DNA of 64,000 nucleotides, from positions 1 to 64,000 of the forward strand of contig JAUNHH010000006.1 of assembly GCA_030524055.1 (NCBI GenBank). Reading direction: 5' to 3'. Below the pieces are notes generated by a model that had not been told where the DNA came from, made no database searches, and was given only the letters and a program-made list of their open reading frames with translations. The position numbers and the translations under genes are program-made. Of this stretch, positions 5,986-61,294 are shown piece after piece (the stretch's first letter is position 1; the number at the start of each line of letters is the position of its first letter). The DNA is from Actinomycetaceae bacterium. Its GTDB lineage: Bacteria > Actinomycetota > Actinomycetes > Actinomycetales > Actinomycetaceae.

Positions 5986-6879
5986 CTATTCTATTTGCGC
6001 CCCGCCCTCGTGAATAAGAATGACATCTCCGCCTTTCTTTTTGGGTTCACGAGTAAGTACGATGGCGCCAGAAATAATAATGATGACTGCCCCACCCCAG
6101 ATTACTGCCCACCACGGGAATCCAGGCCCCACTGGTACCATTGTTGCTGCCGTTTCTTCTTCAGTGGGATAAATACGCTCCCCGGTGAGAACAATGCGAT
6201 GAGTATTGAGTCCTAATGGCGTGCAGGTAATGAGGGTGGCAAGGTCGCGGCCTTCAATAGCGCGGATGGATTCTGAGTCTGATGGGTCAACGACGATTTT
6301 CTCGAACACACGGTAGGTAAAGACCTCGCCAAAGGTTTCCACTGAGAAAATGTCGCCGGATTGTACGCGGTCAAGGTCGGTAAACATTCGCGCTTGAGCC
6401 AGTCCAGAATGGCCAGTAATCACTGACCGAGTTCCACTTCCTCCAACCGGCAGGGAGGTCCCCTCTAAATGGCCCGCCCCCTGAAGAAGAATCTGATCAG
6501 AGGTCCCGTGATAAACAGGTAAATCCACATTAATAGAGGGAATACGAATACGCGCCATCAGGCCGTAATCGTCAGCCATTAACTGTTTCCCATAGGGAAT
6601 AATGGACTGCATATCGTCACTGGGGCGCTCTTCAGAGGTAGGAATGCGCTGGTCAGCACCGACCAAGGCGCCAGCAGAGAGAGCATGGTTATAGCTTTGG
6701 GCAGCTAGGATTTGCTGCTCGGGACCGCCGTCAGTGTCGTCGATTTGCCGCGAGTAGTTCTCGGTGACTTTGGACTGGTTATATTGACTCACCCATTGGG
6801 CAGCGCTGGGGTAAACCAGCATTGTCACCCCAATAATCAGGGTGAGTGCTGCGGTTATGGCTAAGCCAATCCGGCCCAT
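5986..6879 (-). CDS. Class C (pilus-assembly) sortase
   Basis: Membrane transpeptidase that polymerises LPxTG pilins through a lysine of the pilin motif. An N-terminal membrane helix is followed by the sortase fold with catalytic His in VITGHSGL (about residue 156), Cys in TLITCTPLG (about 217) and Arg in NTHRIVLTGER (about 227). A second hydrophobic helix near the C-terminus is typical of class C enzymes. I chose ATG 6879 because AAAGGAAAGGG lies 8 nt upstream. A GTG at 6936 extends the frame, but that extension runs across an intergenic-type 13-mer repeat (6918-6930). The gene lies directly downstream of two pilin genes, as in Actinomyces fimbrial operons. The extreme C-terminus (HEGGAQIE) is encoded by another copy of the 13-mer (5999-6011). 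Confidence 0.9.
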   Translation of the reverse strand: MGRIGLAITAALTLIIGVTMLVYPSAAQWVSQYNQSKVTENYSRQIDDTDGGPEQQILAAQSYNHALSAGALVGADQRIPTSEERPSDDMQSIIPYGKQLMADDYGLMARIRIPSINVDLPVYHGTSDQILLQGAGHLEGTSLPVGGSGTRSVITGHSGLAQARMFTDLDRVQSGDIFSVETFGEVFTYRVFEKIVVDPSDSESIRAIEGRDLATLITCTPLGLNTHRIVLTGERIYPTEEETAATMVPVGPGFPWWAVIWGGAVIIIISGAIVLTREPKKKGGDVILIHEGGAQIE

Positions 6880-6996
6880 CGGCGCTGCCCTTTCCTTTAC
6901 AGATGGAATAAAAATGGACGAGGGCGGGGCTGCCACCTGAAGGAGTGACAGCCCCGACTGTTCAGGGGTTACCTGAGTGTGCGCATGTATTGCGGG

Positions 6997-8388
6997 TCAG
7001 TTCTTGGCGCGGCGACGCAGCGCAACAAAGACAATCCCCAGTCCGGTAAGGATGACAACTCCACCGCCAATTGCGAGGAGGAGTTCACCATTGGCACCTG
7101 TAGCAGGCAGAGGCGGAGCGGCTGCCTTAACGTTCTCTACCTGAAGGACTTTTGGCCGATCATCATCGTTATTGTCCACAGGAGAAGGTTCGATCTTCAT
7201 GCAGTTATTCGCTGGGACAAGGTAACCCGAGGGCGGATTCACTTCCTTGACGTAATAGGCGCGCGCTTTCACTAAGAGGGGATCAGGAAGATCACCCCAG
7301 TGCTGAGAGAGAAGTTTCTGCGGATCAATCTCCACCTTTTCGGTTGGAGTACAGGCCGCATCCTTATATAGCTCAAATTGAGCGCCTTTCAATCCAGTAG
7401 TTGTACCCGCCTCAACCTTTAAAATATCGATAAATGCCCAGGGGGACGTCACCGTATTGGAGTAGGCTCGACTAAAGCCATTCTTGGTCCGGAATTGCGT
7501 TTCGGACCGATTCGGCCGAGCTCCACCATCAGAAGCAGTGGTAGTAATTTCCAGGCGAATAGTGTTTCCAGCACCAAATCCCGCAACGCTACTTGCTACG
7601 TTCGCTGTCACTGTCCCTCTATCGTGAGTAATTGGCAGAGTTTGCTCCACCCCATTCACGTAGACCTTTGCTGACTTATAGGTGAATCCATAAGGTAATT
7701 CATCGATCAGGGTAATGGATGTCAAAGGATCAGCAACTGACGGAGCAGGGATGACCTGATCAATAGTCCAGCTAATGTCATCACCCTTAAGAAAGGCCTT
7801 TGAGTCATCGAGGGTTTTTACCGGATCAGATTTGACAGTGTTCTTCGGATAAACATGGACATCATAAACCCAGGAGGAGGTCCCACCCTGCCCTTGGGAC
7901 GGGTGAGGAATAGTCACAATAAAAGGGGGTGACATTGTGTGAACATTAGCAGGCGCATTTGATTCCGTGACGTAATAGGCACCCACGGGCAGATTAGAAA
8001 ATGTTGTCGTCCCACTGGCATCCGTAACTTGGGTTACTGGTGTCCCATTCGCGGATTGACTAAAGTAACCGACCTCATGTTGGGTCAATCGATCCCAGTC
8101 TCCTTGTCGCCGCAAATCAAAATTCACCATTCTACGGACTGTGAATGTCACACCTTGAATTGGCTTTGCTGATGCTGGGGCATTAAGAACTTGGCCGTTG
8201 GCAGCAGAATCTGCCCAGGCCGGGTTCTCATATTTATGGATAGTAATAGAGCCCTTCGCATTGAAATCGATATCTGCTGGGGTGGCAGCATGCGCTTGAG
8301 GCGAAGCAATAACAGACGGTGCGATAGCCAACATCGCAGCAGAGAACGCAAGAATAATACGCCTGCTTATAGTGCGCAGAGTGCTCAC
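6997..8388 (-). CDS. LPxTG fimbrial major subunit (pilin), copy 1
   Basis: 463-residue secreted pilin. A signal peptide ends near QAHA. The pilin motif WVYDVHVYPKNT (about residue 180) carries the lysine that class C sortases use for cross-linking. The E-box YYVKEVNPPSGY is near residue 380, and the C-terminus has LPATG, a hydrophobic helix and an RRRAKN tail. Length and architecture match the FimA/FimP and SpaA-type shaft pilins with isopeptide-stabilised Cna-B-like domains. The adjacent upstream gene is a paralogue of similar length with the same N-terminal HKYENP, pilin-motif and TGANGELLL signatures, so the pair arose by tandem duplication. Which of the two forms the main shaft cannot be read from sequence. 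Confidence 0.9.
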   Translation of the reverse strand: MSTLRTISRRIILAFSAAMLAIAPSVIASPQAHAATPADIDFNAKGSITIHKYENPAWADSAANGQVLNAPASAKPIQGVTFTVRRMVNFDLRRQGDWDRLTQHEVGYFSQSANGTPVTQVTDASGTTTFSNLPVGAYYVTESNAPANVHTMSPPFIVTIPHPSQGQGGTSSWVYDVHVYPKNTVKSDPVKTLDDSKAFLKGDDISWTIDQVIPAPSVADPLTSITLIDELPYGFTYKSAKVYVNGVEQTLPITHDRGTVTANVASSVAGFGAGNTIRLEITTTASDGGARPNRSETQFRTKNGFSRAYSNTVTSPWAFIDILKVEAGTTTGLKGAQFELYKDAACTPTEKVEIDPQKLLSQHWGDLPDPLLVKARAYYVKEVNPPSGYLVPANNCMKIEPSPVDNNDDDRPKVLQVENVKAAAPPLPATGANGELLLAIGGGVVILTGLGIVFVALRRRAKN

Positions 8389-8419
8389 GATTTTTCCTCT
8401 TATCTATTAGAGCCAGAAC

Positions 8420-9982: not shown

Positions 9983-12418
9983 TCACAATGAGGAGGCATA
10001 TTTCCGCCTCATGCGAATAAGGTGAATGGTGGCGGCAAGTCCTATTCCGCTCACAGTCAAACCGGAGAGATAAATCCAGTCACTACCAACGCCACCGGTA
10101 TTTGGTAAAGGCGGAGCAGTCACTTCTTGAGTAGGCACGCGGGTATTGGCAAATTCCATTCGAGTAATGCGCTTCCCTGCTTTGTCATAGCGCGTCCGGA
10201 CAATCGGCTTACCATCGAATGCTGTCAGCACTTCAATATGGAGTTGAATGGGTTCCATATCGTAGGTCACGCCAGCTTTATTTCCTTTGACCTGGCGGAT
10301 CGTAAAGAACCAGTCGCCCTCCTCAGCAAATGTCCACGTCCCCAGATTCAGCGTTCCATTTGCTTGGACAGAAACAGGACCAGTGGGCACACCAGTAACA
10401 GAATCAGTCCAATTATCGACGTCCTGTTCGACGGTAAATTGGAAATCGCCCGCAGCAATAGGTGCGATTACGCCATTTTCCCTCAGGGTAACCCTGCCCG
10501 TTGGAGTCGTTTTGGCATTAAGGGTGATGCGTTCAAGTTTCCACGTGCCGGCTGCGTCTTTTACTAATTGGTAGGGAGCACCGGCTGGCAATAATGTCAC
10601 TGAGGGATTAATAGCTGGCGAACCCGTCGTAATATAAGCCCGCCCGACATGGTCAACGTAATTATTATCAAGTCGATAGACTTCCCATGTCACGCTTTCT
10701 TCAGTCCCACCAGAAATGGCGGAGCCTTCAGAGTGAATACGAATAGTCCCATCGCCAGTAATCTGGCCGGCCTTTAATTGCGATCCTGCACTATCAAATC
10801 GCGCCCCGCCCTCGACACTCAATACTCCACTGACGTCGAGGTCGGTGACTCCTTTCGCTAACGTCACAGCGCCACCATTAATCGTCAGATGATCGACGTC
10901 ATCAATGGAAAGCTCAGAGAGGAAAGTATTGTCGAATGTCACCGAACGCGCCCCTGCTCCTGCAGGTGAGGCGGGATTAACAATGCGCTCAATAAAGTTC
11001 GAGGCGCTTGCCAGGTCAACTGTTCCTGTTTGCCCCGCCACCCCAGGAGGCGCTAAATAGATGGCATCTTCCACGCGAATATTGCGCGAATCCAGATCAA
11101 TAGTGACTGGAATAGCACTCGGCTGATCTGGGTCACCCGCCACAATAGAAGCAAAACGGGTTTCATCGCTGGCATTTGTCACTAAAAGACGGGCATTAGG
11201 TCCGGACGGGGCTGCCCCATATGTTCCTGTGACAATATGCGGACGCTGCCCTGTTTGATTCAGACCAATACGGGTAGAAACCCCATCAAGAGTCAGCGCA
11301 TAGCCACTCATCCAAATAGTGCCGGAGGCCTGAGATTCCTTAATAAGGTTCAGGCTCATATTCTTTAATGTGACATCCGCGCCTAATGCCAGGTCAGGCC
11401 CGCGAAGCCGCAGAACATTGCCATTTCCGTCAATAGTGACATTCTTGCCAATAGTAAACGTGGCGCTACTTCCTGTCACCGTAATATCGGTTTTGAGTTT
11501 AATAGTGTCCCCAGCCTGGGCACGGGCCAGAGCGGTGGTGAGATTACGGAAAGGGTTACCTTCCGTGCCGTCGCCAAAAGTATCAGTGGCAGCGCCATTA
11601 ATGACCCATAATTCGCGCCCTGTATTCGCCGCTCCTGCAGCTGCGCGGTCTTCATTTCCTCCACCGACTGGGCTGGAAGGCTGACCCGATTGAGGGCGAG
11701 TACCTGATTGCGGAGTTACACCTGACTGGGCAGTAATCCCAGACTGGGGAAGGGTAAGAGATTGCGCACCGTCAGTTGACTGTGCTTCGGAGCCGGATTG
11801 CGGAGCGTGAGCAGATTGGCTCCCCTCCCCCGATTGCACGGTGGCTACTGTCTGGCTTTCCGCCGCAGGGTCCACAACAGACTGAGCGCCAGTAGCATAT
11901 TGAGCAGTATCGGCAGACTGGCTAGTCGCAGCGCTGTCTCCACTCGCTGCTACATCCGTATCCACATTGGCAGTACTCTCGGGGGCTACACTCTCATCGG
12001 CTTTGTCAGCCTCGGGAGAGTTTTCCACGGCCTCACTAATGGCAGGCGTATCGCTCTCATCGCGGCTGTCTTCTCCTTCAGTTAAGGCAGGGGCAGAAAC
12101 GTCAGCGCTCCCCTGCCCTTCGGACACGCCAGGAGTTGGGTGTTCCTCACTAGCCCCGCCCTCGTGAATGGACAGTGAAGGGCACTCCTCCCCTCGCCCA
12201 CCACTACTTGGCGTGTCGGCTGCAGATTGCGCATCAGATTGGGCAGCCGATTGACTGCTTTGGGAATCGCAGGGTTCGGAGGGGACTCCTTCGTGTGCCC
12301 AGGACAAACCGACGGGCACAACGGTGCCTACCCCAACGCTCAGGGCCAGCAGAGTCGCAACAAGGCGCGAAGAAGCCAGGCGCGAGCGATGGCGTACATG
12401 GAGTGCCGAATGAGCCAC
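9983..12418 (-). CDS. LPNTG surface protein, probable pilus tip adhesin
   Basis: 811-residue wall-anchored protein at the head of the pilus cluster. The start is GTG 12418, with AGGAG 5 nt upstream. A signal peptide ends about residue 42 (LSWAHEG). Residues 50-255 are a Gln-Ser-rich low-complexity stalk of repeated QSG/QSA units. A right-handed beta-helix-like domain follows (around IGKNVTIDGNGN). Near residue 690 is a FctA/Spy0128-like isopeptide pilin domain (FQFTVEQ, WFFTIRQVKG). LPNTG (about residue 774), a membrane helix and RMRRKYASSL close the protein. Position ahead of two pilins and a class C sortase matches pilus tip proteins of Actinomyces and Corynebacterium. Ligand unknown. A 192-bp gap with no recognisable element separates it from the pilin. 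Confidence 0.82.
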   Translation of the reverse strand: MAHSALHVRHRSRLASSRLVATLLALSVGVGTVVPVGLSWAHEGVPSEPCDSQSSQSAAQSDAQSAADTPSSGGRGEECPSLSIHEGGASEEHPTPGVSEGQGSADVSAPALTEGEDSRDESDTPAISEAVENSPEADKADESVAPESTANVDTDVAASGDSAATSQSADTAQYATGAQSVVDPAAESQTVATVQSGEGSQSAHAPQSGSEAQSTDGAQSLTLPQSGITAQSGVTPQSGTRPQSGQPSSPVGGGNEDRAAAGAANTGRELWVINGAATDTFGDGTEGNPFRNLTTALARAQAGDTIKLKTDITVTGSSATFTIGKNVTIDGNGNVLRLRGPDLALGADVTLKNMSLNLIKESQASGTIWMSGYALTLDGVSTRIGLNQTGQRPHIVTGTYGAAPSGPNARLLVTNASDETRFASIVAGDPDQPSAIPVTIDLDSRNIRVEDAIYLAPPGVAGQTGTVDLASASNFIERIVNPASPAGAGARSVTFDNTFLSELSIDDVDHLTINGGAVTLAKGVTDLDVSGVLSVEGGARFDSAGSQLKAGQITGDGTIRIHSEGSAISGGTEESVTWEVYRLDNNYVDHVGRAYITTGSPAINPSVTLLPAGAPYQLVKDAAGTWKLERITLNAKTTPTGRVTLRENGVIAPIAAGDFQFTVEQDVDNWTDSVTGVPTGPVSVQANGTLNLGTWTFAEEGDWFFTIRQVKGNKAGVTYDMEPIQLHIEVLTAFDGKPIVRTRYDKAGKRITRMEFANTRVPTQEVTAPPLPNTGGVGSDWIYLSGLTVSGIGLAATIHLIRMRRKYASSL

Positions 12419-12650: not shown

Positions 12651-12834
12651 GACAAAGCGCGTCGGCAATGACAATTGCCGTTTGGAAACGCGTCGTCGCG
12701 GCGGTTTGTATTGATGTACGAGGGCGGGGCCGACATTTACGCAGGTCAGAAATTTCGGTCCCACAGCCCCAACTGACAACCCGCCGCCACAACGCGGATT
12801 CGCTGCCCAAAACACGTCTTGGCGGCGCTTTGTC
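12651..12834. repeat. Family A 60-bp palindromic repeats, locus 1 (two copies)
   Basis: Two 60-bp units, 12651-12710 and 12775-12834, each bounded by GACAA(A/C) and its complement, separated by 64 bp. The spacer carries an exact ACGAGGGCGGGGC (12718-12730) and the conserved word GCAGGTC. The units are imperfect palindromes and align over their full length with copies at 15.7, 43 and 50 kb. They fill most of the gap between the tip adhesin and the BCCT gene. Confidence 0.85.
12718..12730 (+). repeat. Exact copy of the dispersed 13-mer ACGAGGGCGGGGC (type copy)
   Basis: Eighteen exact copies occur in the window. Plus-strand starts: 6918, 12718, 15434, 20664, 24480, 30513, 33177, 34884, 42419, 53968. 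Minus-strand copies start at 5999, 12153, 18755, 28459, 31803, 35427, 41508, 50279. At least ten near copies exist, for example 3008, 10803, 15776, 20639, 25798, 25823, 28428, 40090, 46304, 55230 and 61057. Thirteen exact copies are intergenic; five are inside genes (5999, 12153, 30513, 35427, 53968). A random 13-mer would be expected far less than once in 64 kb. Confidence 0.95.
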
Positions 12835-14956: not shown

Positions 14957-15520
14957 AGAAAATCATCTCGTTTCGATAATGAACGCCCCAAAAGCCATTA
15001 CACGTCTGGTATCGACAGGCATATGCAATTGGTGAGCGGCGTCCGTCTCGTAGCGCAGCAGCAATCAAACAGGGTCAGAGGTAGTGACCCAGGAAGGTGG
15101 AACCATGTGTAGCGCCAGCCCTGTAGGACCGAAGAAGCGTGCGATGCGATTTCCCTGTGGCCCTGTAGGACCTTGCGGGAGATCAGGTTCCGCGATATGC
15201 GCTGCCTGGCCGCAGGAAGCCCAGGAAATGAGCGTGACTCTTTTTCCGTCAATGACTTCCTGTTGACCATCTTCTGGTTCTAACTTAACGAAGTGAGGCA
15301 GAATGTGCGCGGCGAAGGTCCTAGGTTGTCTGGTATCTGTGCAGGTGGAGGCGGGTGAGTTCGATTGCCTCACAGGGCAAGCTCTGCGCCAACTGGTCGC
15401 GAAGTGGGCATCTGACCCTTCCTTTACTCATTCACGAGGGCGGGGCGCGTGATTACATCTGACTCACCCTGTGTCTGCGCTCTCGGAGCGTGTGAGGCGA
15501 CGGTATCTTTTGGATGGCGC

Positions 15521-15707: not shown

Positions 15708-16037
15708 AACAAACCGCGTCCTGTGCGACAATCGCGCCTGGAAAATGCGTCGTCGCGGCGGGTTGTCCAGATGTGCGAGGGCGGGGCCACTATTTGCCCA
15801 GGTCGGCAATTACGGCCGAACAACCCCGACTGACAACCCGCGTTCACAACGGTAATTGCTGCTTGAAAATGCGTCCTCGCGGCGGTTTGTCCGCTTGGCC
15901 CGGTGCGGATAGGTGCTCGGGTAGAAAGTCTGCACCTATTTGTGCAGGTCGGCATTTACGGCCGAACAACCCTGACTGACAACCCGCGTTCACAACGGTA
16001 ATTGCTGCTTGAAAATGCGTCCTCGCGGTGGTTTGTC
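15708..16037. repeat. Family A 60-bp palindromic repeats, locus 2 (three copies)
   Basis: Units at 15708-15767, 15832-15891 and 15978-16037, separated by 64 and 86 bp. The second and third are nearly identical along the unit and along about 35 bp of preceding spacer (GGTCGGCA, TTACGGCCGAACAACC), which points to a recent tandem duplication of unit plus spacer. The first spacer carries a near copy of the 13-mer at 15776-15787. Confidence 0.9.
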
Positions 16038-18754: not shown

Positions 18755-18767
18755 GCCCCGCCCTCGT
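18755..18767 (-). repeat. Dispersed 13-mer in the pckG / DUF47 divergent gap
   Basis: Exact GCCCCGCCCTCGT. The 293-bp divergent gap (18631-18923) must carry promoters for both flanking genes, but I could not identify convincing -35/-10 pairs. Confidence 0.85.
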
Positions 18768-20638: not shown

Positions 20639-20676
20639 GCCCCGTCCTCGTGAATTTTTATTGACGAGGGCGGGGC
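20639..20676 (+). terminator. Terminator built from an inverted pair of 13-mers after pit
   Basis: GCCCCGTCCTCGT (20639-20651) pairs with exact ACGAGGGCGGGGC (20664-20676) across a 12-nt AT-rich loop, 20 bp past the stop. One mismatch (G-T) in a 13-bp stem. Confidence 0.75.
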
Positions 20677-24479: not shown

Positions 24480-24492
24480 ACGAGGGCGGGGC
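24480..24492 (+). repeat. Dispersed 13-mer between convergent genes
   Basis: Exact ACGAGGGCGGGGC, 6 bp after one stop codon and 6 bp before the other. Confidence 0.9.
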
Positions 24493-25797: not shown

Positions 25798-25835
25798 ACC
25801 CCGCCCTCGTACATATGAATTCACGAGGGCGGGGT
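25798..25835 (-). terminator. Terminator from a perfect inverted pair of 13-mer-like repeats after ppk
   Basis: ACCCCGCCCTCGT (25798-25810) and ACGAGGGCGGGGT (25823-25835) form a perfect 13-bp stem with a 12-nt AT-rich loop, 25 bp beyond the ppk stop. Both arms carry the same compensatory change from the exact 13-mer, which keeps the stem intact. Confidence 0.8.
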
Positions 25836-28427: not shown

Positions 28428-28471
28428 ACGAGGCCGGGGCCAGGCTTTTTATGAGGGCGCCCCGCCCTCGT
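28428..28471. terminator. Imperfect inverted 13-mer pair between the unknown gene and ppk
   Basis: ACGAGGCCGGGGC (28428-28440, one mismatch) faces exact GCCCCGCCCTCGT (28459-28471) across 18 nt containing CTTTTT. It lies 24 bp past the stop of the minus-strand gene ending at 28495, so it probably terminates that transcript. Confidence 0.6.
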
Positions 28472-29329: not shown

Positions 29330-31753
29330 ATGTACACCATGACAGCGGACGTTGATGTGCCCACGGTACCGACCGCCAGGGTGGAACAGGCACCAGATCC
29401 CGGGGTCGCAGACCGCGCATTGGGAGCACTCCAGGGACTGGCATTAGGGGATGCTTTAGGCATGCCCAGCCAGGCAATGTCCCCTGACTGGATCCGCCGT
29501 CACTATGGGCGCATTTGCGGATTGGTTGATTCTTCCCGAGAGCAGCCCTACGCCCCTGCAATGCCCGCCGGGCATATTACTGACGACACCGAACAGGCTC
29601 TTCTTCTCGTTGACCTATTGGCCCAAGGTCGGGGAATTATTGACCCCCATGCCTTTGCCAACGCGCTTTTAGGGTGGGAAGAAAAAATGGCGGCCACAGG
29701 GTCGCTGGACCTTTTAGGACCCTCAACAAAGGCCGCTTTAGAGAAGGTCCATCACGGGGCTGACCCTGCTGAAGGACTAGGAGCTGGCACAACGAATGGT
29801 GCAGCTATGCGTGTCACGCCTGTGGGGATTGCGTGGCCAGCTTCGGATCCGGGCCGCCTGGCGGATGCGGTGAGGTGTTCGACTCGGGTCACCCACGATT
29901 CGCCTCAGGGTTTTTCCTCCGCGTATTTAGTGGCCACCGCGGTGAGTTTGGGCGTGGAAGGATCGCTTGCGCTGCCGCCCTTGAGTCCTAATGGGGCGCG
30001 GCCCGTGGATTTAGTGGGACGGGTGTTGGGTGAGGCCCTGCGGCTAACGGCTGCAGTGCCAAAGTCAGGACACTGGTCGCCAGTGGCTGACATTGTGCCA
30101 CGTGCACGCGAAGCTTTGGCTCTTGTGGGCCGCCTGCCCGGTGACTTGCATTTAGTGCCAAGCATTGAGGAAGTGGCTTCCACGATCCGTTCTAATGTGG
30201 GCACGTCCATGGAAGCGAATGAGTCGGTGCCCGCGGCTCTTGCATTGGCCAGTCAATTTGCTGATGACCCTCTACAGGCTTTGCTGGTGGCCGCCAATTT
30301 GGGTGGAGATACGGACACGATTGGCGCTATTTGTGGCGCGATTTTGGGTGCCTGCCTGGGAACAGCTGCCTGGCCCCAGGAAATGGTCGCCCAGGTTGAG
30401 CGCGTTTCAGGGATTGATTTGCGCTCCGCTGCGGACACCTTGGTTGCTTTGCGGGTGCGCCCCTCCGCGCCGCTACCTGGCCCTGTTGTCATCCCCGGGC
30501 CGCCTCCCGTTGACGAGGGCGGGGCTGCTTCTGGAGCGATGCCTGCGCCTTCTCTTTCTGACGCGGAGTATGGGGCAACGTCTGCGGCGGTGCCTGATAT
30601 TCGCGGGTTACCTGGCACCCCTGGGGACCGCGGTGTTTTAAGTGTCCAGGGAGGCTCTGGCGAAGGAAATACGGCAGCACCATCAGGTCTACCAAATGCG
30701 ACCCCACCGGGATCGCTCCCTTCTTTTGTGGGGACCACGACGCGAAGCGTCTGGTATTTGGGCCAGGTCATTGTGGACTTAGCAATGACAGTGGAGGCCA
30801 TTCCCGAGCCAGGCGGAGATGTTTTTGCTGATGATCCGCTCATGCTGCCCGGGGGCGGGTTTAATGTGCTGGTGGCAGCGCGGCGAATGGGCGCGACTGT
30901 GCGTCATGGCGGTGCCCTAGGAGAAGGCGCTTTTGCGTCCTTAGCGCGTACAGCGTTAGAGCGAGCCGATATTCATTTCATGGGCCCCCGAATGGTTGGG
31001 GTGGATCAGGGTTATTGCGTCGCCATGACTGAACCCAATGGTGAACGCACCTTTATTTCAACCCGAGGCGCAGAAACCTTAGTCCCAGAAGAGTCCTTTG
31101 CAGATTTACCGGTGACCGATGGGGATGTCATTGTTTTATGTGGCTATTCCCTGACTCACCCTGGGGTTGCCGAAGCGGTGTCTCGGGGGAGCGCCCGCTG
31201 GCTGGGCCGCGATTTAGGAATCATTATTGACGTTTCACCCATGGTTGCTGAGATTCCCGCGGACCGGCTGAAAATGGTGGCAGGTTTGCAGCCTTTATGG
31301 TCAATGAATGAGCGTGAGGGGCGTTTATTACTGGCCCGTATTGGCGATATTTCCCCAGCGGGCACACCGGATGGCACCACAATGCCTTTTACGGATCCGA
31401 ATATTGAACCCTCATTAATGTGTGAAATGCTGGCGACATTCCTGGTCGCACCGGTGGTATTGCGAGTTGGCGCGGCGGGCGCTTGGTGGTGTGCGGGCCC
31501 GAAGGCCACTCCCCTCCATATTCCTTCACCTTCTGTTGATGTAGTGGATACCAATGGTGCGGGAGATACACATACTGGCGTTTTGGCTGCCCTCCTCACT
31601 GAAGGGGTGCCGATCGAGCGGGCCTTATTAATGGCGAATTGTGCGGGGGCGCTGTCAACAACCGCACGTGGTGGAGCCAGTTGCCCTGCTCGCCGTGAGG
31701 TTGAAGCAACTGCTGCACTATTGAGCACTGGAACGCTGCCCTCTGCACGGTAG
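29330..31753 (+). CDS. ADP-ribosylglycohydrolase / PfkB sugar kinase fusion
   Basis: About 807 residues. The N-terminal half is an ADP-ribosylglycohydrolase fold: GLALGDALGMPSQ, HITDDTEQALL and NLGGDTDTIGAICGAILG contain the acidic Mg2+ ligands. A Pro/Gly-rich linker, partly encoded by an exact 13-mer (30513-30525, giving DEGGA), joins it to a PfkB/ribokinase domain with PGGGFNVLVAARRMGA and the catalytic DTNGAGDTHTG. Hydrolase plus ribokinase suggests release of a ribosyl group from a nucleoside or ADP-ribose derivative and its phosphorylation. The start is uncertain: the frame is open into the tRNA, and ATGs at 29318, 29330 and 29339 are possible. I took 29330, 5 nt after GGTGG. Confidence 0.88.
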   Translation: MYTMTADVDVPTVPTARVEQAPDPGVADRALGALQGLALGDALGMPSQAMSPDWIRRHYGRICGLVDSSREQPYAPAMPAGHITDDTEQALLLVDLLAQGRGIIDPHAFANALLGWEEKMAATGSLDLLGPSTKAALEKVHHGADPAEGLGAGTTNGAAMRVTPVGIAWPASDPGRLADAVRCSTRVTHDSPQGFSSAYLVATAVSLGVEGSLALPPLSPNGARPVDLVGRVLGEALRLTAAVPKSGHWSPVADIVPRAREALALVGRLPGDLHLVPSIEEVASTIRSNVGTSMEANESVPAALALASQFADDPLQALLVAANLGGDTDTIGAICGAILGACLGTAAWPQEMVAQVERVSGIDLRSAADTLVALRVRPSAPLPGPVVIPGPPPVDEGGAASGAMPAPSLSDAEYGATSAAVPDIRGLPGTPGDRGVLSVQGGSGEGNTAAPSGLPNATPPGSLPSFVGTTTRSVWYLGQVIVDLAMTVEAIPEPGGDVFADDPLMLPGGGFNVLVAARRMGATVRHGGALGEGAFASLARTALERADIHFMGPRMVGVDQGYCVAMTEPNGERTFISTRGAETLVPEESFADLPVTDGDVIVLCGYSLTHPGVAEAVSRGSARWLGRDLGIIIDVSPMVAEIPADRLKMVAGLQPLWSMNEREGRLLLARIGDISPAGTPDGTTMPFTDPNIEPSLMCEMLATFLVAPVVLRVGAAGAWWCAGPKATPLHIPSPSVDVVDTNGAGDTHTGVLAALLTEGVPIERALLMANCAGALSTTARGGASCPARREVEATAALLSTGTLPSAR

Positions 31754-31802: not shown

Positions 31803-31815
31803 GCCCCGCCCTCGT
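31803..31815 (-). repeat. Dispersed 13-mer after the ADPRH/PfkB gene
   Basis: Exact GCCCCGCCCTCGT, 50 bp past the stop, unpaired. Confidence 0.9.
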
Positions 31816-33176: not shown

Positions 33177-33189
33177 ACGAGGGCGGGGC
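33177..33189 (+). repeat. Dispersed 13-mer after the MFS gene
   Basis: Exact ACGAGGGCGGGGC flanked by ATTA and TAAT, so the repeat sits in a short dyad. Confidence 0.9.
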
Positions 33190-34883: not shown

Positions 34884-34896
34884 ACGAGGGCGGGGC
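34884..34896 (+). repeat. Dispersed 13-mer between convergent genes
   Basis: Exact ACGAGGGCGGGGC starting 3 bp past the transpeptidase stop and 18 bp before the EamA gene's end. Confidence 0.9.
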
Positions 34897-34913: not shown

Positions 34914-35777
34914 TTACTCTTTATTCCCATAGCGGGTAGCAAGCCATACGGCAATAGAGACAAGCACAAGGCCAATGATTTCCCATATGCCGGGGATTTG
35001 CGCCAGCATAATAGCGCCAACTAATGCTGACGATGCAGGAAGCAATGCGGTAAAAAGAGCAAATGTGGCTGCGCTGAGTTTTCGCATTGCCAAAGCTTCA
35101 AGACTGTAGGGCACCACTGTGGATAAAAGTGCCACTCCAAGAAGAGCCACCATTACGTCACTATGGGACAGTGCAGCCAGAGCGCCGGGCCCAAGAATCG
35201 GCGCATAAATAACAGCACCCGAAGCACACCCTAAAGCGAGATTCGTAATTCCCGAGCGATTTTGGGCAATTTTCTGCCCCAAAACAATATAACTACCCCA
35301 CGCTAGGGCAGCTAATAAGGTCCACGCCACTCCGAGTTGATCATCAGTGCGCGTTAGATTCAAACCTAATCCGCCGATACTGCTCACGCCTAGTAGTGCC
35401 AGCAGCGCCGCTATTCTTGGGATCCAGCCCCGCCCTCGTAAAACGGCAACGGTGACCGGACCAATAAACTCTACCGACACAACTGTTCCCATTGGAATAT
35501 ACGAAATCGCCGAGTAGAAGGACACATTCATCGTGGCCAATATCAGGCCAAAAAGGGCAGAGATAGCGAGGTCTCTTTTAGTGAGCCCATCGCGCCATGG
35601 GCGACGCCATGCCAGCAGCACAATCCCAGCAATTACCAGCCGCCACCATGCCACATGGGGCGCATCAATCCGCGTAAATAGCATGACAGCGATTGCGGCC
35701 CCAATATATTGAGTCAGAGCAGAGCCAATAATAAAAATCTGCGGAGGGAATTGGGGAAGGGAATGGCGCTGAGGCAT
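34914..35777 (-). CDS. EamA/DMT-superfamily exporter
   Basis: 287-residue membrane protein of ten short helices in two homologous EamA halves, of the RhtA type (amino-acid or metabolite export). The central block FIGPVTVAVLRGRGW and the second-half VPYSLEALAMRKLSAATFALF, where an RhtA-like conserved Glu sits, support this. An exact 13-mer (35427-35439) lies within the gene at the loop after helix 4. It ends convergently with the transpeptidase and starts 15 bp after the ECF ATPase stop, so it may be the last gene of the ECF transcript. Confidence 0.87.
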   Translation of the reverse strand: MPQRHSLPQFPPQIFIIGSALTQYIGAAIAVMLFTRIDAPHVAWWRLVIAGIVLLAWRRPWRDGLTKRDLAISALFGLILATMNVSFYSAISYIPMGTVVSVEFIGPVTVAVLRGRGWIPRIAALLALLGVSSIGGLGLNLTRTDDQLGVAWTLLAALAWGSYIVLGQKIAQNRSGITNLALGCASGAVIYAPILGPGALAALSHSDVMVALLGVALLSTVVPYSLEALAMRKLSAATFALFTALLPASSALVGAIMLAQIPGIWEIIGLVLVSIAVWLATRYGNKE

Positions 35778-40088: not shown

Positions 40089-40122
40089 GGCTCCGCCCTC
40101 GTCAATTTTCGAGGGCGGAGCC
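40089..40122 (-). terminator. Terminator from inverted 13-mer-like pair after the MscS gene
   Basis: GGCTCCGCCCTCG (40089-40101) and CGAGGGCGGAGCC (40110-40122) form a perfect 13-bp stem with an 8-nt loop (TCAATTTT), 6 bp beyond the stop. Both arms carry the same change from the consensus, preserving pairing. Confidence 0.8.
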
Positions 40123-41507: not shown

Positions 41508-41520
41508 GCCCCGCCCTCGT
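41508..41520 (-). repeat. Dispersed 13-mer upstream of the MscS gene
   Basis: Exact GCCCCGCCCTCGT, 33 bp before the start codon region; unpaired. Confidence 0.9.
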
Positions 41521-42407: not shown

Positions 42408-42610
42408 TGTGCCCATTAACGAGGGCGGGGCGCGGGAGTTGCGCGGACCTGCGAGCAGGGCGGCGATATGTGCCCCATTTTTGGGACTGTAAAGCGCCGG
42501 ATTTTGAGGCCGTATTTTTCTTGCCGGCTGATTCCTGCCGGGTGTAATCTTGGGGTAGAGGACATAAGGGTGGACCACCCGCTTGCGACGAGTGATCCAC
42601 TTGAGAGTCC
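42408..42610. other. Gap between tRNA terminator and first small-protein gene
   Basis: Contains an exact 13-mer (42419-42431) and, near 42560-42605, the conserved 3' flank of small-protein copy 1. No further gene seen. Confidence 0.6.
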
Positions 42611-46224: not shown

Positions 46225-46342
46225 CCCTCGGCACGCATAGACCAATGAGTTTCCTAGTACCTGTCTTCACTAGGGCAGATTGGCCGCCCTTGATAGCCGT
46301 CGTGCCCCGGCCTCGTAGGGGGAAAGGAAACGGAAACGAGCG

Positions 46343-50172: not shown

Positions 50173-50357
50173 GACAAAGCGCCGCGAAGACGTGTTTTCG
50201 CGCGGGGATTGTCGTCATGGGCGCGCTTTGTCAGTCGGGGGCTGTTGGCCTGCAATTGGTGACCTGCACAAATAGCGGCCCCGCCCTCGTACGTCACTAC
50301 AAAGCGCCGCCAGGACGTGTTTTGGGCAGCGAATCTACGTTGTGGGCGCGGTTTATC
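50173..50357. repeat. Family A 60-bp palindromic repeats, locus 4 (two copies)
   Basis: Units 50173-50232 and 50299-50357, 66 bp apart. The spacer holds CCTGCAATTGGTGACCTGCA and an exact 13-mer (50279-50291, minus). Sits between the SNF2 stop and DUF4253 paralogue 2. Confidence 0.88.
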
Positions 50358-51380: not shown

Positions 51381-51382
51381 GC

Positions 51383-53507: not shown

Positions 53508-54226
53508 GATTGCGGCAGCTCCTCGGATTGGGGGCCAACAGGGGTGTGGGGATGGTTCCGCGGCGGGAAATATGCTGCAGAAGGGTCAAGTGGAGTAATT
53601 TTATCGACTTTCCATACGCTTTGACTGGGGTTTCGGAGCAGACTGATCTGCCAGATTGTTGCGCTGGTTGAAAGATTGCAATCAACGCGTTCACCCGCGT
53701 CTGTCGTCGAGATATTTTCAGGGACAGGGGCATCTCGGATGGTTTGGGGCCGAATGAGTTCCATTGGCACCTGGTCGATATTCTTCGCGCCGTCGCTGGT
53801 CACATGAGGAGCGAGGCGCAGTCGCCATTGGGCAGGGTCTACATCTTCGGTAGCGAAATAGTCTCGCGCAAAATCCTGGGCGGGTTTAGCGCATGCCTCC
53901 ACCCCCGCGTCAAGTTGCTTCTTCCCGCTGTGGGTGGCACCAGATGCACTTTGACGTGTATTCACTGACGAGGGCGGGGCTGCGCTCTGTCCTACCTGCG
54001 ATTGCGAAGAATCTGCGGCGCTTTGGGGTCGCGTTGCAGACGAGCGAGAACCTGAGGATGGAGCATGAATAATGTCAGGAATTCCCTCGTCAGCGAGATT
54101 GGAAGCGGAGTTTTCGCCACTGCGGGTGACAGCTGAAAATATTGACCACCCGATAGCCGCAAGAAGAACGCTAATAGCCGCGATGAGCCATAAATGCGAG
54201 CGAGTGAATTGCCATTGTCTTCTCAT
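53504..54226 (-). CDS. Single-pass membrane protein, possible VirB8-like subunit
   Basis: 240 residues: a short cytoplasmic start, one helix (LWLIAAISVLLAAIGWSIF, about 12-30), a Gln-Ser-rich linker (to about 95; RPQSAADSSQSQVGQS), then an alpha/beta domain with C-terminal WQISLLRNPSQSVWKVDKI. That topology and the NTF2-like ending fit VirB8/TcpC-type proteins of Gram-positive T4SS, but similarity is only topological. Four base pairs overlap with the next gene and 12 bp separate it from the hydrolase gene. An exact 13-mer (53968-53980) encodes part of the linker. Confidence 0.6.
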   Translation of the reverse strand: MRRQWQFTRSHLWLIAAISVLLAAIGWSIFSAVTRSGENSASNLADEGIPDIIHAPSSGSRSSATRPQSAADSSQSQVGQSAAPPSSVNTRQSASGATHSGKKQLDAGVEACAKPAQDFARDYFATEDVDPAQWRLRLAPHVTSDGAKNIDQVPMELIRPQTIRDAPVPENISTTDAGERVDCNLSTSATIWQISLLRNPSQSVWKVDKITPLDPSAAYFPPRNHPHTPVGPQSEELPQS

Positions 54227-54238: not shown

Positions 54239-55858
54239 TTAGCCTCGCCCTTCAAAACGACGAACCGCCCACTCTTCACTTGCCCAAAATCCAGCCAAAG
54301 GGGCATAACGGACGACATCACCCGTTGTTGGGGCATGAATCATTTGGCCATCGCCAACATATATTCCAATATGGTGATAGCGCGATACACCAGGAACTCG
54401 GAAAGCAATGACATCGCCCGGTTTGAGCAGTGAAAGATCAACACTCGTTCCCGGACCAGAAGCAATCTCTTGACCCACTCGCGCCTGCTCATCTGCAGTT
54501 CGAGGTAGGGAAACTCCCAAATTGGAATAGCTCAATTGGACCAGTCCGGAACAATCTAAGCCTCCCTCTGCAAGACTCTCCCCTCCCCAGACATAATCAA
54601 CGCCTAAATATTTTTGCGCTTCAGCAACAACTGGAGCTCCACTTCCTGATAACGTCGGACCGCATTGCGCACTTGATGGCGACTTCCCGTGGACCACTTC
54701 CTCAATATAGTTTTTCGTCAGAGAAGGAATATGCGGGTAGCGCATTAAAGCAGTACGGCCAGCATTATGCTCAATAACTAGCGCTTCTTCTTCGCTGATT
54801 TTTGCATAGGGGGCTTCTGGATTTGCGCTGCGGAGGGCACGAACTTCTTCGAGAGCATTCTTTAAATAGAGCCCGCCGTATTTTGCATGGGCCATCGGGT
54901 CGGTAATGCCTTTCGGAGTACCAGAACCGAACGCACTTTCACCGGGGTACACCGTGGCCCATATTCGCCGATTAATTTGAATGAGCCCCCATGTGCCTCC
55001 ATTGTCATCTGGAGCAAAAACCTCCGGATCAAATTTTGATTCGCGATACATCATTCGCGCGATAAAACCTGGATCGAGGTGCGAAGAGTGCGCCATTTCG
55101 CTCACCCACGGACGCGCATTTTCAGGTACAGCAACCGCCCCATGACAACTACCGCCAAGGGTAATGGCCGAGCGCTTGGCGATAATGTCAACAATCCATC
55201 CAGGAAGGAATGCCAGAATCAAGAGAATAACGAGGGCGGGGACAATAAGAAGTCTCCACCGTGGCGCCGATAACGACGCCCACACACTTTGAGGAGCGCG
55301 AATAACACGCCGAAACCCACTGCGCGCACTATGAATGACAGTTCTAGTGAGGCGCGTTCCAAAAGAGCCTCGGGTACGCCCATATTTTCTCGATGCGGAA
55401 AGTGGAGCATTGCCGAAGCCTGGTCGCACGGGCGGCGCAATGTGCTGAGAACGCAAAGAGTCACGGGTAGAGCGCAGGCCTAATTGAAGTGAGGTTGAGG
55501 GAGTGGAATCCCGCCCTCGTTCCTCCTCTTTCCCGAAGGGCATCTGATACTCCGTTTGACGGCGCCGCTGCGCGGATACGCCGCCTGCCGCGTCGCGTCC
55601 GCCAACGTCACTCTGCTGCCTGGACGAAGTGCGCCCACCGCGGGCGGAAATGTCATGGCGAGGCCGATCTTCACCGGCCCCAGGACTCTGGGTGGCATTG
55701 ACGTGCCCCCTGTGCCCATCTTTTTCGGCAGGGCCAGGGCGATCAGAGTGTGTGTTGCCTCCATTGGAGAGCAGGCGTTGATTCCGTGTCGAAATAGTGA
55801 TCTGCGAAAAGTGTCCTGCCGTGTAGGAATGCGAGGAGGACCGGCGAATATTTACCAC
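54239..55858 (-). CDS. VirB1-like wall hydrolase: SLT plus NlpC/P60
   Basis: 539 residues. A basic, disordered cytoplasmic part of about 215 residues precedes one membrane helix (LLIVPALVILLILAFLPGWI). A lytic-transglycosylase domain follows, with catalytic Glu in MMYRESKFDP and the GGTWGLIQIN block, then an NlpC/P60 peptidase with DCSGLVQLSY (Cys), HHIGIYVG (His) and IHAP. The SLT plus NlpC/P60 combination is the hallmark of the wall-opening enzyme of Gram-positive conjugation machines. GTG start with GGGGTGAG upstream; 6 bp after the VirB4 stop. The long cytoplasmic tail is unusual. Confidence 0.88.
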   Translation of the reverse strand: MVNIRRSSSHSYTAGHFSQITISTRNQRLLSNGGNTHSDRPGPAEKDGHRGHVNATQSPGAGEDRPRHDISARGGRTSSRQQSDVGGRDAAGGVSAQRRRQTEYQMPFGKEEERGRDSTPSTSLQLGLRSTRDSLRSQHIAPPVRPGFGNAPLSASRKYGRTRGSFGTRLTRTVIHSARSGFRRVIRAPQSVWASLSAPRWRLLIVPALVILLILAFLPGWIVDIIAKRSAITLGGSCHGAVAVPENARPWVSEMAHSSHLDPGFIARMMYRESKFDPEVFAPDDNGGTWGLIQINRRIWATVYPGESAFGSGTPKGITDPMAHAKYGGLYLKNALEEVRALRSANPEAPYAKISEEEALVIEHNAGRTALMRYPHIPSLTKNYIEEVVHGKSPSSAQCGPTLSGSGAPVVAEAQKYLGVDYVWGGESLAEGGLDCSGLVQLSYSNLGVSLPRTADEQARVGQEIASGPGTSVDLSLLKPGDVIAFRVPGVSRYHHIGIYVGDGQMIHAPTTGDVVRYAPLAGFWASEEWAVRRFEGRG

Positions 55859-59536: not shown

Positions 59537-59597
59537 GGGGACTCATCTCCCTCCTGAAGTCCTCAGTTCAGACAGGCATGATGAATGACAGTGCTGC

Positions 59598-59810
59598 CTA
59601 CCCACCTACCCCACTGAGATCGATTGTGGAAAAGAGTTGAGCGGCAGCAACAATCATTGCCCCACCAATAAGTTGCCACATTCCATCTTGAGTTTGTGGC
59701 CCATTGTGGTCTTTTAGCCCACCTGCAAGGGTGACAACTCCCCACACTGCCCACAAACCTCCGCCAACAGTGGCAAAAGTGGTAAATAAACCGATCGCTT
59801 GCGCCAGCAT
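59598..59810 (-). CDS. Small two-helix protein, Maff2/VirB2-like
   Basis: 70 residues: helix 1 LFTTFATVGGGLWAVWGVVT, polar loop KDHNGPQTQDG, helix 2 MIVAAAQLFSTID. The pattern and position before the VirB6-like gene match Maff2/VirB2-type conjugation pilin-like proteins of Gram-positive elements. AAAGGACC precedes the ATG. Confidence 0.7.
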   Translation of the reverse strand: MLAQAIGLFTTFATVGGGLWAVWGVVTLAGGLKDHNGPQTQDGMWQLIGGAMIVAAAQLFSTIDLSGVGG

Positions 59811-59855
59811 AATGTGGTCCTTTCTTCAGTTGTCCCCCTTGCGGGGCGGCAGTTT

Positions 59856-60611
59856 TTACGTATGCGGCTTGCTCCGGCGAATGGCGCGGCTTGCCATCAC
59901 AGCTCCGCCGCCACCAACGAGTAGGAATGTGCTTCCTGCGAGGAAGAAGGCGAAGGTGCCACCAGTTTCAGCCAGCGTGATATCGGTTTGAGTCTCCGTC
60001 ACACTGGTTGCCGGGGTAATTGGCTCACTTGGCAGTTGCGAACGAGACACGCCATCTTCGTATACTTCATTCGCTTCTTCTTCGACATCCAGATCCCAGG
60101 TCACATCGCCAAGTAGGTCAGGCTGGGAATCACTGCTTGGGGGAACCTCTTCTTCAGCAGGAGCCTGTGGCTGAGGAACAGGCACAAGTGGAACAGGTTG
60201 ATTCGCGCCGGGATCCTCAACGGGTTGATCTACGCCAGGATTAGGTTCCGGAGTTGGTGTTGGGCCGGGTTCTGGACTGGGGGTGGGCTCTGGATTGAGA
60301 GGCACCTCGGGGCGCTCTTCGTGAGGAATAGGCTCCTCACCACCCTCGAAACCAGGCGGGACCTCATCCACAAAACCGTCAGGATCCTCAACGTTGTCTG
60401 GGAATTCTGGGGCTTCGGGTTGAGGACGATCCTGCCCACCCTCGACATTGGGGTCCGGATCAGGTGTTGGGGCAGGCAAATCATCCGCGCCAAATACGGC
60501 GTCAATGCCATTTGCTGCTCCTAAAGCATTATCAACTGGAGCAGCCTGCGCCACATTTGGCGCAATAGCCAGGGCCAGTGCCCCTGCGCCGATAAGAACG
60601 CTCTTCTTCAT
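59856..60611 (-). CDS. Pro/Glu-rich surface protein with LAETG sorting-like signal
   Basis: 251 residues. Signal peptide MKKSVLIGAGALALAIAP with cleavage near AQAA. Residues 40-200 are a Pro/Glu/Asp-rich extended region (PEPTPSPEPGPTPTPEPN). The C-terminus has LAETGGTFAF, a hydrophobic helix and SRAIRRSKPHT, a sortase-type anchor with LAETG in place of LPxTG. ATG 60611 was chosen with AAGGGCTGG upstream. It is first in the T4SS-like operon, 46 bp before the small VirB2-like gene, so the machine has its own wall-anchored surface component. Confidence 0.82.
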   Translation of the reverse strand: MKKSVLIGAGALALAIAPNVAQAAPVDNALGAANGIDAVFGADDLPAPTPDPDPNVEGGQDRPQPEAPEFPDNVEDPDGFVDEVPPGFEGGEEPIPHEERPEVPLNPEPTPSPEPGPTPTPEPNPGVDQPVEDPGANQPVPLVPVPQPQAPAEEEVPPSSDSQPDLLGDVTWDLDVEEEANEVYEDGVSRSQLPSEPITPATSVTETQTDITLAETGGTFAFFLAGSTFLLVGGGGAVMASRAIRRSKPHT

Positions 60612-61294
60612 CTGACCAGCCCTTCGGTAGTCGAGGTCGCGGAACTGCACAGTCCGCCCTTGTCACAGTGTTGATGGTGTAGTCGCAGTCACAGCGACCA
60701 CCTATAACTTTGAGGACAATCCGCCAAGAACTCAAGATGAACTCTGCGTTGACCGGCAAAGATTCAGTAATCTTCGGCCAAGAACTCCTATGGGGAGGCT
60801 AAGGAGCTTCTCAGAGAGAATGAGATGAATGTGCAGGTCAAGCATCCTTTGGGCAATATTTTCCAGGTAAATAGATAGTGGATGAGATCGCTCTCATGAC
60901 AAGTTAGTGATTTAGGCCATAGGCCACCCTACGGACACTTTCAGCTTCCCTATTGACAACCCACCTTGTTTATATTTCATTCGATGCGCATCATGTCTTT
61001 CCCTGACAAAATATGCGCTGTCAACTCCCTTGGGCAATCAGTGCGTTTTTCCACCAACGAGGGCGGAGCACTAAATATCAAGGGGACGCCGCCAAAACCT
61101 GATCTACTCAAAGCCATGATGTGGCAGGGAGTGGCCTTCGCTGAGGTCTTTACTCGGACTCCACTCTTGACATAGAGTCGGTGCCCTAGTCACGTCTTTC
61201 ACCCTCATAGGAGAGTATTCGTTCCGATGAAGCTGTGATCCCCACTCGGCTCGGCCGAGAAGCCACCCGTATTACAACGGCCCGGGAGATCACT
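60612..61294. other. Divergent gap before the ABC-F gene
   Basis: No credible gene. It contains a near 13-mer (61057-61069) and, just before the ABC-F start, a four-codon minimal frame (ATG AAG CTG TGA at 61227-61238) and a CGGCTCGGCCGAG dyad. ABC-F resistance genes are often controlled by leader-peptide attenuation, but here the evidence is thin. Confidence 0.4.

What the first reader, a model, noticed from the sequence alone, without database searches (positions are those of the whole stretch)
5999..61069. A 13-mer, ACGAGGGCGGGGC, saturates the window like a DNA uptake sequence
Seen: 18 exact copies (10 plus, 8 minus) and at least 10 with one or two changes in 64 kb, about one exact copy per 3.6 kb. 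Chance expectation is well below one. Thirteen exact copies are intergenic although intergenic DNA is a small fraction of the window. Orientation is balanced, unlike Chi or KOPS. Established: Neisseria DUS and Haemophilus USS are 9-12-mers with this density, intergenic bias and inverted-pair terminators. Inference: an uptake or recognition sequence in an actinobacterium, where none is well known. Alternatives: a nucleoid-protein site or a dispersed small element.
Basis: partly seen in the sequence, partly recalled or inferred. Interest (0 to 1): 0.9.

Follow-up and report, generated by a model that had tools for sequence, protein, structure and literature searches.

The report
DNA uptake-like code in an actinobacterium
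A 13-letter DNA word stamped hundreds of times across the genome of a Schaalia-type actinobacterium looks like the "self" labels that Neisseria and Haemophilus use to take up their own DNA, and if tests bear that out it would be a new case in a very different branch of bacteria.

Summary
The window holds 18 exact ACGAGGGCGGGGC (10+/8-) and 23 more with 1-2 changes. The 3.03 Mb genome holds 727 (363/364), the reversed word none. It is mostly not part of a longer repeat: 8 of 104 sampled copies are. Copies favour intergenic DNA (68 of 104 against 15% of bases) and gene 3' ends, partly form terminator-like inverted pairs, and are spaced more evenly than in any of 1000 simulations. Relatives in the genus carry dialects: position 7 is G, C, or any base. 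The C form marks one well-supported clade, the Schaalia odontolytica group. In that clade orthologous intergenic motifs are 97.6% identical where flanks are 76%, and change by substitution. The genome has ComEA, ComEC, DprA and two Tad/Flp pilus loci, as in transformable Micrococcus luteus, but no PF07963 pilin was found, so a ComP-type receptor is unlikely. Best reading: a DNA uptake sequence, about 0.7. Uptake itself is untested. My paper searches listed no such motif for Actinobacteria.

The parts
5999..6011 (-). exact copy, coding
6918..6930 (+). exact copy at the start of the gene 5986-6936 (intergenic if the later start codon is used)
12153..12165 (-). exact copy, coding
12718..12730 (+). 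exact copy, intergenic, inside a longer dispersed repeat
15434..15446 (+). exact copy, intergenic
18755..18767 (-). exact copy, intergenic
20639..20651 (-). one-change copy, left arm of the inverted pair with 20664
   Evidence: RNA fold -31.5 kcal/mol, z -5.6
20664..20676 (+). exact copy, intergenic, right arm of the inverted pair after gene 19558-20619
24480..24492 (+). exact copy, intergenic between convergent genes
25798..25810 (-). one-change copy, left arm of an inverted pair
   Evidence: RNA fold -32.4 kcal/mol, z -6.8
25823..25835 (+). one-change copy, right arm of that pair
28428..28440 (+). one-change copy (C at position 7), left arm of an inverted pair
   Evidence: RNA fold -27.3 kcal/mol, z -2.5
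28459..28471 (-). exact copy, intergenic, right arm of that pair
30513..30525 (+). exact copy, coding
31803..31815 (-). exact copy, intergenic by gene calls, but inside an overlapping 252-aa ORF
33177..33189 (+). exact copy, intergenic, just after gene 31917-33170
34884..34896 (+). exact copy, intergenic between convergent genes
35427..35439 (-). exact copy, coding
40090..40102 (-). one-change copy, left arm of the inverted pair with 40109
40109..40121 (+). two-change copy, right arm of that pair
41508..41520 (-). exact copy, intergenic
42419..42431 (+). exact copy, intergenic, after tRNA-Phe 42298-42373
50278..50290 (-). exact copy, intergenic, inside a longer dispersed repeat
53968..53980 (+). 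exact copy inside the 240-aa ORF 53504-54226, which my caller did not take as a gene and which has no Pfam match
1643..1655 (-). one-change copy
3008..3020 (+). one-change copy
10803..10815 (-). one-change copy
15775..15787 (+). one-change copy, inside a longer dispersed repeat
46304..46316 (-). one-change copy (C at position 7)
55230..55242 (+). one-change copy
61057..61069 (+). one-change copy
61386..61398 (-). one-change copy

Best explanation
The motif is a DNA uptake sequence of a naturally competent actinobacterium close to Schaalia odontolytica. Full form in this species: ATTG-ACGAGGGCGGGGC. Proposed working: the cell displays Tad/Flp pili; a DNA-binding surface component (my guess: a small TadE/F-like pilin, or ComEA) grips double-stranded DNA that carries the motif, in either orientation; the DNA passes to ComEA and ComEC, one strand enters, DprA helps load RecA, and it recombines with the homologous locus. 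Because fragments with a motif enter best, motifs that arise by mutation ride into other cells and spread, and broken ones are overwritten. That gives hundreds of evenly spread copies in permissive places (between genes, near 3' ends, mostly one reading frame) and lets pairs be reused as terminators. A change of receptor shifts the preferred letters and makes dialects. Shown here: copy number, placement, spacing, dialects, conservation (in the C-dialect relatives), presence of the genes. Inferred: that this machinery reads the motif, which protein binds it, and that uptake is motif-biased.
For: 727 exact copies, strand-balanced, reversed word 0; the 12-letter core is in 116 one-kb bins against 0.12 expected from a third-order Markov model of 464 kb. 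Copies with 0/1/2 changes: 104/107/102, against 0/1/31 for the reversed word. A and T at -4/-3 are part of the motif in this genome (65%, 70% of 114) and in G146 (79%, 79% of 34). Intergenic 68 of 104 against 15.2% of bases, p=8e-31; 43 of 77 unpaired copies, p=2e-16; 44 of 104 against 6.4% under the strictest coding rule. Nearer a gene end than a gene start in 43 of 63. Spacing CV 0.65 against 0.95 +/- 0.08; 0 of 1000 simulations as even. Dialects: ten genomes with 69-303 copies of the C form and 0-4 of the G form; G form foremost in G000 and its sister G170; all four bases in G146. Orthologous intergenic motifs 97.6% identical, flanks 76.1%; random intergenic 13-mers 80.6% and 81.0%; 15 of 16 site clusters agree, p=2e-4. 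ComEA, ComEC, DprA and two Tad loci, the set reported for M. luteus (passages of PMC4322843).
Against: I saw no uptake or transformation data for this organism. The com/tad genes are near-universal in the genus (ComEC 33 of 35, T2SSE 35 of 35), also in species with almost no motif (G159 4 copies, G171 none), so they do not predict it; 17 of 35 genus genomes hold only 0-44 copies of the any-base form. No PF07963 pilin in 35 genomes. Density is lower than I recall for Neisseria DUS. The AT prefix is weak in G148 (41%, 45% of 22) and absent in the pooled other C-dialect genomes. The intergenic excess is not significant in the G162 sample (6 of 15). Shorter 9-mer cores in G157, G151, G145 and G009 are not intergenic and follow codon frames. 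The G form is not confined to one clade of the tree. One of 16 site clusters goes the other way. Eight of 104 copies sit in longer repeats or a duplicated gene. The longest motif-free stretch of the sample holds ordinary-looking genes, not a mobile island.
Confidence: 0.7

Rival explanations
1. A binding site for an intracellular protein (nucleoid, condensin or segregation factor, or a global regulator) that needs many evenly spread sites.
For: Even spacing and both orientations; conservation of the site amid diverged flanks fits any binding site.
Against: Copies with up to one change are 0.98 per kb in divergent gaps, where promoters lie, against 3.4 per kb in convergent gaps, and 43 of 63 exact copies lie nearer 3' ends. 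A structural site would hardly switch letters between clades while keeping hundreds of copies, nor be missing from a species of the genus (G171); this last step is inference. No strand bias as for KOPS-like sites.
Confidence: 0.14
2. A standard intrinsic-terminator building block: selection for stem-loops at gene ends made a common stem sequence.
For: 29 inverted pairs in 464 kb, 14 of them in convergent gaps; three of the four window pairs were folded and reach -27 to -32 kcal/mol, z -2.5 to -6.8.
Against: 77 of 104 exact copies have no opposite copy within 45 bases, and 34 of those 77 are coding; a terminator needs a stem, not one particular 13-letter word.
Confidence: 0.07
3. A dispersed small mobile element (REP/MITE-like) whose conserved part is the 13-mer.
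For: Six of 104 copies belong to a dispersed repeat of about 100-150 bp and two to a duplicated gene; two more (L001:17986, L013:12148) share 52% of one flank, just above the random maximum of 50%.
Against: 88 of 104 copies share no flank above 50% identity with another, and six of the 16 that do have only their inverted partner in that flank. Column preference outside the 13-mer is strong only at -4 to -2 and weak at a few others such as -9 and +14. Relatives show gapless sites that differ by one or two letters; 5 of 574 intergenic comparisons have a gap in the motif.
Confidence: 0.04
4. A recombination signal acting after entry (Chi-like, or a gene-conversion hotspot), which spreads by biased repair rather than by uptake.
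For: It could also give drive, dialects and conservation (inference).
Against: Chi-like sites are read on one strand relative to replication (recalled); here no strand bias was seen, and the intergenic excess is unlike Chi (recalled).
Confidence: 0.05

Closest known systems
DNA uptake sequence (DUS) of Neisseriaceae and its dialects
   Same: Many copies, intergenic inverted pairs linked to terminators, dialects that track phylogeny around a kept core (Frye et al. 2013, PMC3630211, passages seen).
   Different: Unrelated sequence, longer and G-rich, Actinomycetota host, fewer copies, and no PF07963 pilin such as ComP found.
Uptake signal sequence (USS) of Pasteurellaceae
   Same: Genome-wide copies, AT-containing flank as part of the motif, even spacing (USS facts recalled).
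   Different: Sequence, host and pilus type; the AT part lies upstream here.
Flp/Tad-pilus natural transformation of Micrococcus luteus
   Same: comEA/comEC and two tad loci, tad-2 with fused TadB/C (Angelov et al. 2015, PMC4322843, passages seen); here a 442-aa T2SSF protein of about that length stands next to one TadA.
   Different: The passages seen mention no uptake sequence; M. luteus genomes were not examined here.

Membership tests
DNA uptake sequence (DUS/USS) | Hundreds of copies far above expectation, genome-wide | tested here: met
   727 exact, reversed word 0; 116 bins against 0.12 expected
DNA uptake sequence (DUS/USS) | Both strands alike, no replication bias | tested here: met
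   363/364; G148 four stretches p=0.16, origin not located; 29/20 on 240 kb, p=0.25
DNA uptake sequence (DUS/USS) | Short word with unrelated flanks, not a longer repeat | tested here: met
   8 of 104 exceptions, 88 of 104 without any flank above 50% identity
DNA uptake sequence (DUS/USS) | Frequent in permissive intergenic sites, often as inverted-pair terminators | tested here: met
   68 of 104 intergenic; 27 of 104 in pairs
DNA uptake sequence (DUS/USS) | More even spacing than random | tested here: met
   0 of 1000 simulations as even
DNA uptake sequence (DUS/USS) | Dialects consistent with phylogeny | tested here: met
   C form: one clade, 100/100, 9 rows (tenth genome left out for short sequence). 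G form: sisters G000 and G170, but also G157, G151 and, mixed, G146, so not one clade
DNA uptake sequence (DUS/USS) | Turnover by point change, maintained against drift | tested here: met
   tested in the C-dialect clade only, in two regions of about 16 kb
DNA uptake sequence (DUS/USS) | Host encodes a competence machine | tested here: met
   ComEA, ComEC, DprA, two Tad loci; function not tested
DNA uptake sequence (DUS/USS) | Depleted in mobile DNA | tested here: inconclusive
   Longest stretch free of copies with up to one change: 12.4 kb of ordinary-looking genes; next, 11.5 kb with a CRISPR-Cas locus
DNA uptake sequence (DUS/USS) | Motif raises uptake and transformation | not testable with these tools
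   needs a bench assay
Neisseriaceae DUS-ComP system | ComP-type type IV minor pilin receptor | tested here: not met
   PF07963 in 0 of 35 genus genomes, while 8 of 14 control genomes ring
Flp/Tad-dependent competence of M. luteus type | comEA-comEC with two tad loci and no PF07963 pilin | tested here: met
   gene content only

The most novel reading that the evidence does not exclude
An independently evolved, self-specific DNA uptake code in Actinomycetota, read by a Flp/Tad pilus or ComEA rather than by a type IVa minor pilin, with at least three dialects that partition gene exchange among Schaalia species.
Probability: 0.6. Interest if true: 0.92.

Novelty: new variant of a known kind. Interest (0 to 1): 0.86.

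Why it matters
As far as I know, uptake sequences are established only in Neisseriaceae and Pasteurellaceae; the listings showed none for Actinobacteria. A third, unrelated case in Gram-positive Actinomycetota would mean that self-recognition of DNA evolved more than twice and with different pili. It would make the question of why uptake sequences arise testable by comparison, name dialects that may limit gene flow between species, and give a practical handle for transforming this group.

Tried and rejected
De novo word counts in relatives first suggested a core like ACGAGGGCG in G170, G157, G156, G151 and G145, and even ACGACGGCG in G009 of another genus. With gene calls these 9-mers are not enriched between genes and sit in particular codon frames, apart from a weak excess in G170 (11 of 40, p=0.015) and 5 of 10 in the small G156 sample (p=0.085). 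I dropped them as dialects. The full 13-mer in G170, G157, G156 and G151 (69-104 copies, reversed word 0-4) stays as weaker support.

CCGAGGCCGTGG looked like a further dialect in the small-genome species: 47-57 copies in G152, G158, G161, G164, reversed word 0-2. But the ten C-dialect genomes hold 28-54 as well, and all six copies in the G158 sample are coding. Unproven.

PF07963 pilins: none. Motif deserts as mobile islands: inconclusive. Chi/KOPS: no strand bias. A LepA tree had 11 usable rows with only one from the C-dialect clade, so I used ComEC+HolA (20 of 21 regions, G143 dropped for short sequence; 7 of 17 inner branches well supported). The inverted-pair scan of named genomes gave 69 stretches: 36 in Schaalia-group records, 33 scattered one per record over other, mostly high-G+C, genomes; I did not examine those 33.

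Limits: the gene caller is home-made and misses some genes; most statistics rest on 464 kb (400 kb of stretches plus the window) of 3.03 Mb; conservation was measured in relatives, not in this species, and the inverted arms of one pair count as separate clusters there; local alignments may favour conserved anchors, which the random control should share. Comparisons without an aligned flank were dropped by rule; opposite copies within 60 bases were collapsed in the spacing test.
Full report
Observation. All 18 exact copies are present, 10 plus and 8 minus, with none in 100 shuffles; with up to two changes there are 41 against 2.5 expected. The window is the first 64 kb of contig C17 of a genome of 3,034,260 bases in 47 contigs, which holds 727 exact copies, 363 and 364 per strand, and none of the reversed word. 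A word count free of prior choice over 464 kb of this genome (400 kb of stretches plus the window) puts the motif first: the 12-letter core is in 116 one-kb bins where a third-order Markov model expects 0.12, and the 13-mer occurs 104 times where a second-order model expects 0.02.

Which organism. The genome has 34 genus relatives among the 213 family genomes searched, itself included. So the window comes from a Schaalia-type species of the Actinomycetaceae (lineage). The tool says that records of the window's own genome may be left out of that scan, and I do not name the species.

Anatomy of the motif. Aligning the 104 exact copies of the sample shows further preference upstream: A at -4 in 64%, T at -3 in 69%, T at -2 in 46%; beyond that only weak preferences, such as T at -9 and C at +14. 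Near-copies are common: 104, 107 and 102 with 0, 1 and 2 changes, against 0, 1 and 31 for the reversed word. The commonest single changes are the last C to T (22), position 7 to C (15) or A (11), and position 11 to A (11).

Mostly not a longer repeat. Of 104 copies, 16 share more than half of one 60-base flank with another copy (random maximum 50%). Six belong to a dispersed intergenic repeat of about 100-150 bp (two of them in the window, at 12718 and 50278), two to a duplicated gene, six have merely their inverted partner in that flank, and two pass by a hair at 52%. The other 88 share no flank.

Where the copies sit. By a home-made gene caller, 68 of 104 exact copies are intergenic against 15.2% of bases (p=8e-31). 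The excess survives removal of paired copies (43 of 77, p=2e-16) and a strict rule by which every ORF of 100 aa counts as coding (44 of 104 against 6.4% of bases). Copies with up to one change are densest between convergent genes (42 in 12.2 kb), then tandem (46 in 31.1 kb), then divergent (20 in 20.4 kb); eight more lie beside stretch ends. Of 63 intergenic exact copies with both neighbours, 43 lie nearer a gene end than a gene start. Coding copies favour one sense frame, 20 of 36, read nAC GAG GGC GGG GCn. There are 29 inverted pairs within 45 bases, in both arm orders; 27 of 104 exact copies are in such pairs. Three of the four window pairs were folded and reach -27 to -32 kcal/mol.

Spacing and strand. 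With pairs collapsed, spacing has a coefficient of variation of 0.65; placing the same numbers at random within intergenic and coding classes gives 0.95 +/- 0.08, and 0 of 1000 simulations was as even. On 240 kb of contig C3 the strands are 29 and 20 (p=0.25). On the complete chromosome of G148 the stretches 0-0.6, 0.6-1.2, 1.2-1.8 and 1.8-2.43 Mb hold 24, 30, 13, 33 plus-strand copies (100 of 101 listed) and 43, 33, 21, 28 minus-strand copies (100 of 125 listed; the 25 unlisted must lie in the last stretch) (p=0.16). The replication origin was not located.

Dialects. Outside the genus the exact G form occurs at most 11 times per genome and the form with any base at position 7 at most 30 times. 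In the genus the any-base form has 964 copies in G000, 469 in G146, 174 in G170, 178-323 in nine of the ten C-dialect genomes and 79 in the tenth (G160), 90-98 in G151, G156 and G157, 68 in G145, 40 in G173, and 0-44 in the other 17 genomes; the reversed word reaches at most 5. The C form alone has 69-303 copies in G143, G147, G148, G155, G160, G162, G163, G165, G166 and G169, which hold 0-4 of the G form. G000 itself has 128 of the C form. G146 takes all four bases at position 7 (7 G, 4 C, 6 A, 7 T in 100 kb; 13 of 24 intergenic against 21% of bases). The AT prefix is strong in G000 and in G146 (79% each of 34 copies, in DNA of 68% G+C), weak in G148, and absent in the pooled other C-dialect genomes. 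A ComEC+HolA tree of 20 genomes puts the nine C-dialect rows in one clade (100/100) and G000 beside G170 (95/91); G-form genomes also occur in two other places (G146/G151 and G157), so the G form may be the older state or arose more than once (that reading is inference). Intergenic share of the C form: G148 16 of 21 (p=7e-8), G162 6 of 15, not significant (12-letter core); G163 6 of 8 (13-mer). An inverted-pair scan of named genomes found 69 stretches, 36 of them in Schaalia-group records and 33 scattered one per record in others.

Maintenance. Two orthologous regions of the ten C-dialect genomes (around ComEC and around a TadA gene; 78-93% identity to G148 in the first) were compared. Intergenic motifs are 97.6% identical between species against 76.1% for flanks in 574 comparisons at 16 site clusters; 15 of 16 clusters agree, one goes the other way, Wilcoxon p=2e-4; the two arms of a pair count as separate clusters. 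Three coding clusters show 89% against 71%. Random intergenic 13-mers show no such difference (80.6% and 81.0%, 19,944 comparisons); all 13 letters agree in 82% of motif and 24% of random comparisons. Sites differ between species mostly by single letters in gapless alignment; the motif has a gap in 5 of 574 intergenic comparisons.

Machinery. This genome has a ComEA (SLBB and helix-hairpin-helix domains) beside ComEC, a DprA, and two Tad/Flp loci. One has a TadA, a 442-aa T2SSF protein of about the length of a TadB/C fusion (my reading), a small pilin-like DUF4244 protein and a TadE/G-like protein; the other has a TadA, a T2SSF protein and a TadE/G-like protein, with further small ORFs without a Pfam match. 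Angelov et al. report the same set for Micrococcus luteus and that comEC and both tad loci are needed for transformation (PMC4322843, passages). No PF07963 pilin was found in the 35 genus genomes, while 8 of 14 control genomes ring. ComEC is in 33 of 35; the misses are G150 (70% complete) and G173 (88%, 560 contigs). So machinery alone does not separate motif-rich from motif-poor species.

Mechanism. Many copies, even spread, permissive placement, pairs at gene ends, dialects and single-letter turnover together are what an uptake preference with recombination should produce, and Frye et al. describe DUS dialects, phylogenetic congruence and inverted pairs for Neisseriaceae (PMC3630211, passages). 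A nucleoid or regulatory site explains conservation and spread, but less well the paucity in divergent gaps and the dialect switches. The receptor is unknown; the small Tad proteins or ComEA are candidates by inference only.

Literature. Searches for uptake sequences in Actinobacteria or Actinomyces, competence in Schaalia and Actinomyces, and the literal 13-mers listed no report of such a motif in this phylum (listings; passages). The library holds open-licence papers only, so a report elsewhere could be missed.

Noticed in passing
window 12649-12835, 15706-16038, 42966-43431, 50146-50399; L001:312, L009:15630, L012:19336, L017:15306: A dispersed intergenic repeat of about 100-150 bp, partly in neighbouring units, several copies of which carry the motif.
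   Followed up: partly
L020:9000-19983 (G000 contig C30): CRISPR array with a period of about 71-72 bases and genes for a Cas4-Cas1 fusion, Cas3 and a GSU0054-type protein; it overlaps the second longest stretch of the sample without copies of up to one change (11.5 kb).
   Followed up: partly
window 55230-61056: Motif-poor stretch of 5.8 kb around a gene with a TraG P-loop domain (55865-58306), perhaps part of a conjugative element.
   Followed up: no
window 1-5661 (-): Large protein with repeated DUF5979 domains, DUF7926 and a Big_8 domain, cut by the window edge; two parts of it were scanned.
   Followed up: no
window 21055-23092: Two Septum_form-domain proteins; a charged Asp/Ser/Lys repeat runs on into 23151-23915.
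   Followed up: no
G154 samples L037, L066-L069: CCGAGTGGTCG, 12 copies in 100 kb, 8 intergenic: another repeated word in a genus relative, unexplained.
   Followed up: no
G152, G158, G161, G164 and the ten C-dialect genomes: CCGAGGCCGTGG, 47-57 and 28-54 copies per genome, reversed word 0-7; a possible weak relative of the motif.
   Followed up: partly
records JVKM01 and NZ_JVOJ01: Assemblies labelled Xylanimonas cellulosilytica and Sanguibacter keddieii carry the C-dialect motif and share contig lengths with genus members G166 and G165; the labels look wrong.
   Followed up: no
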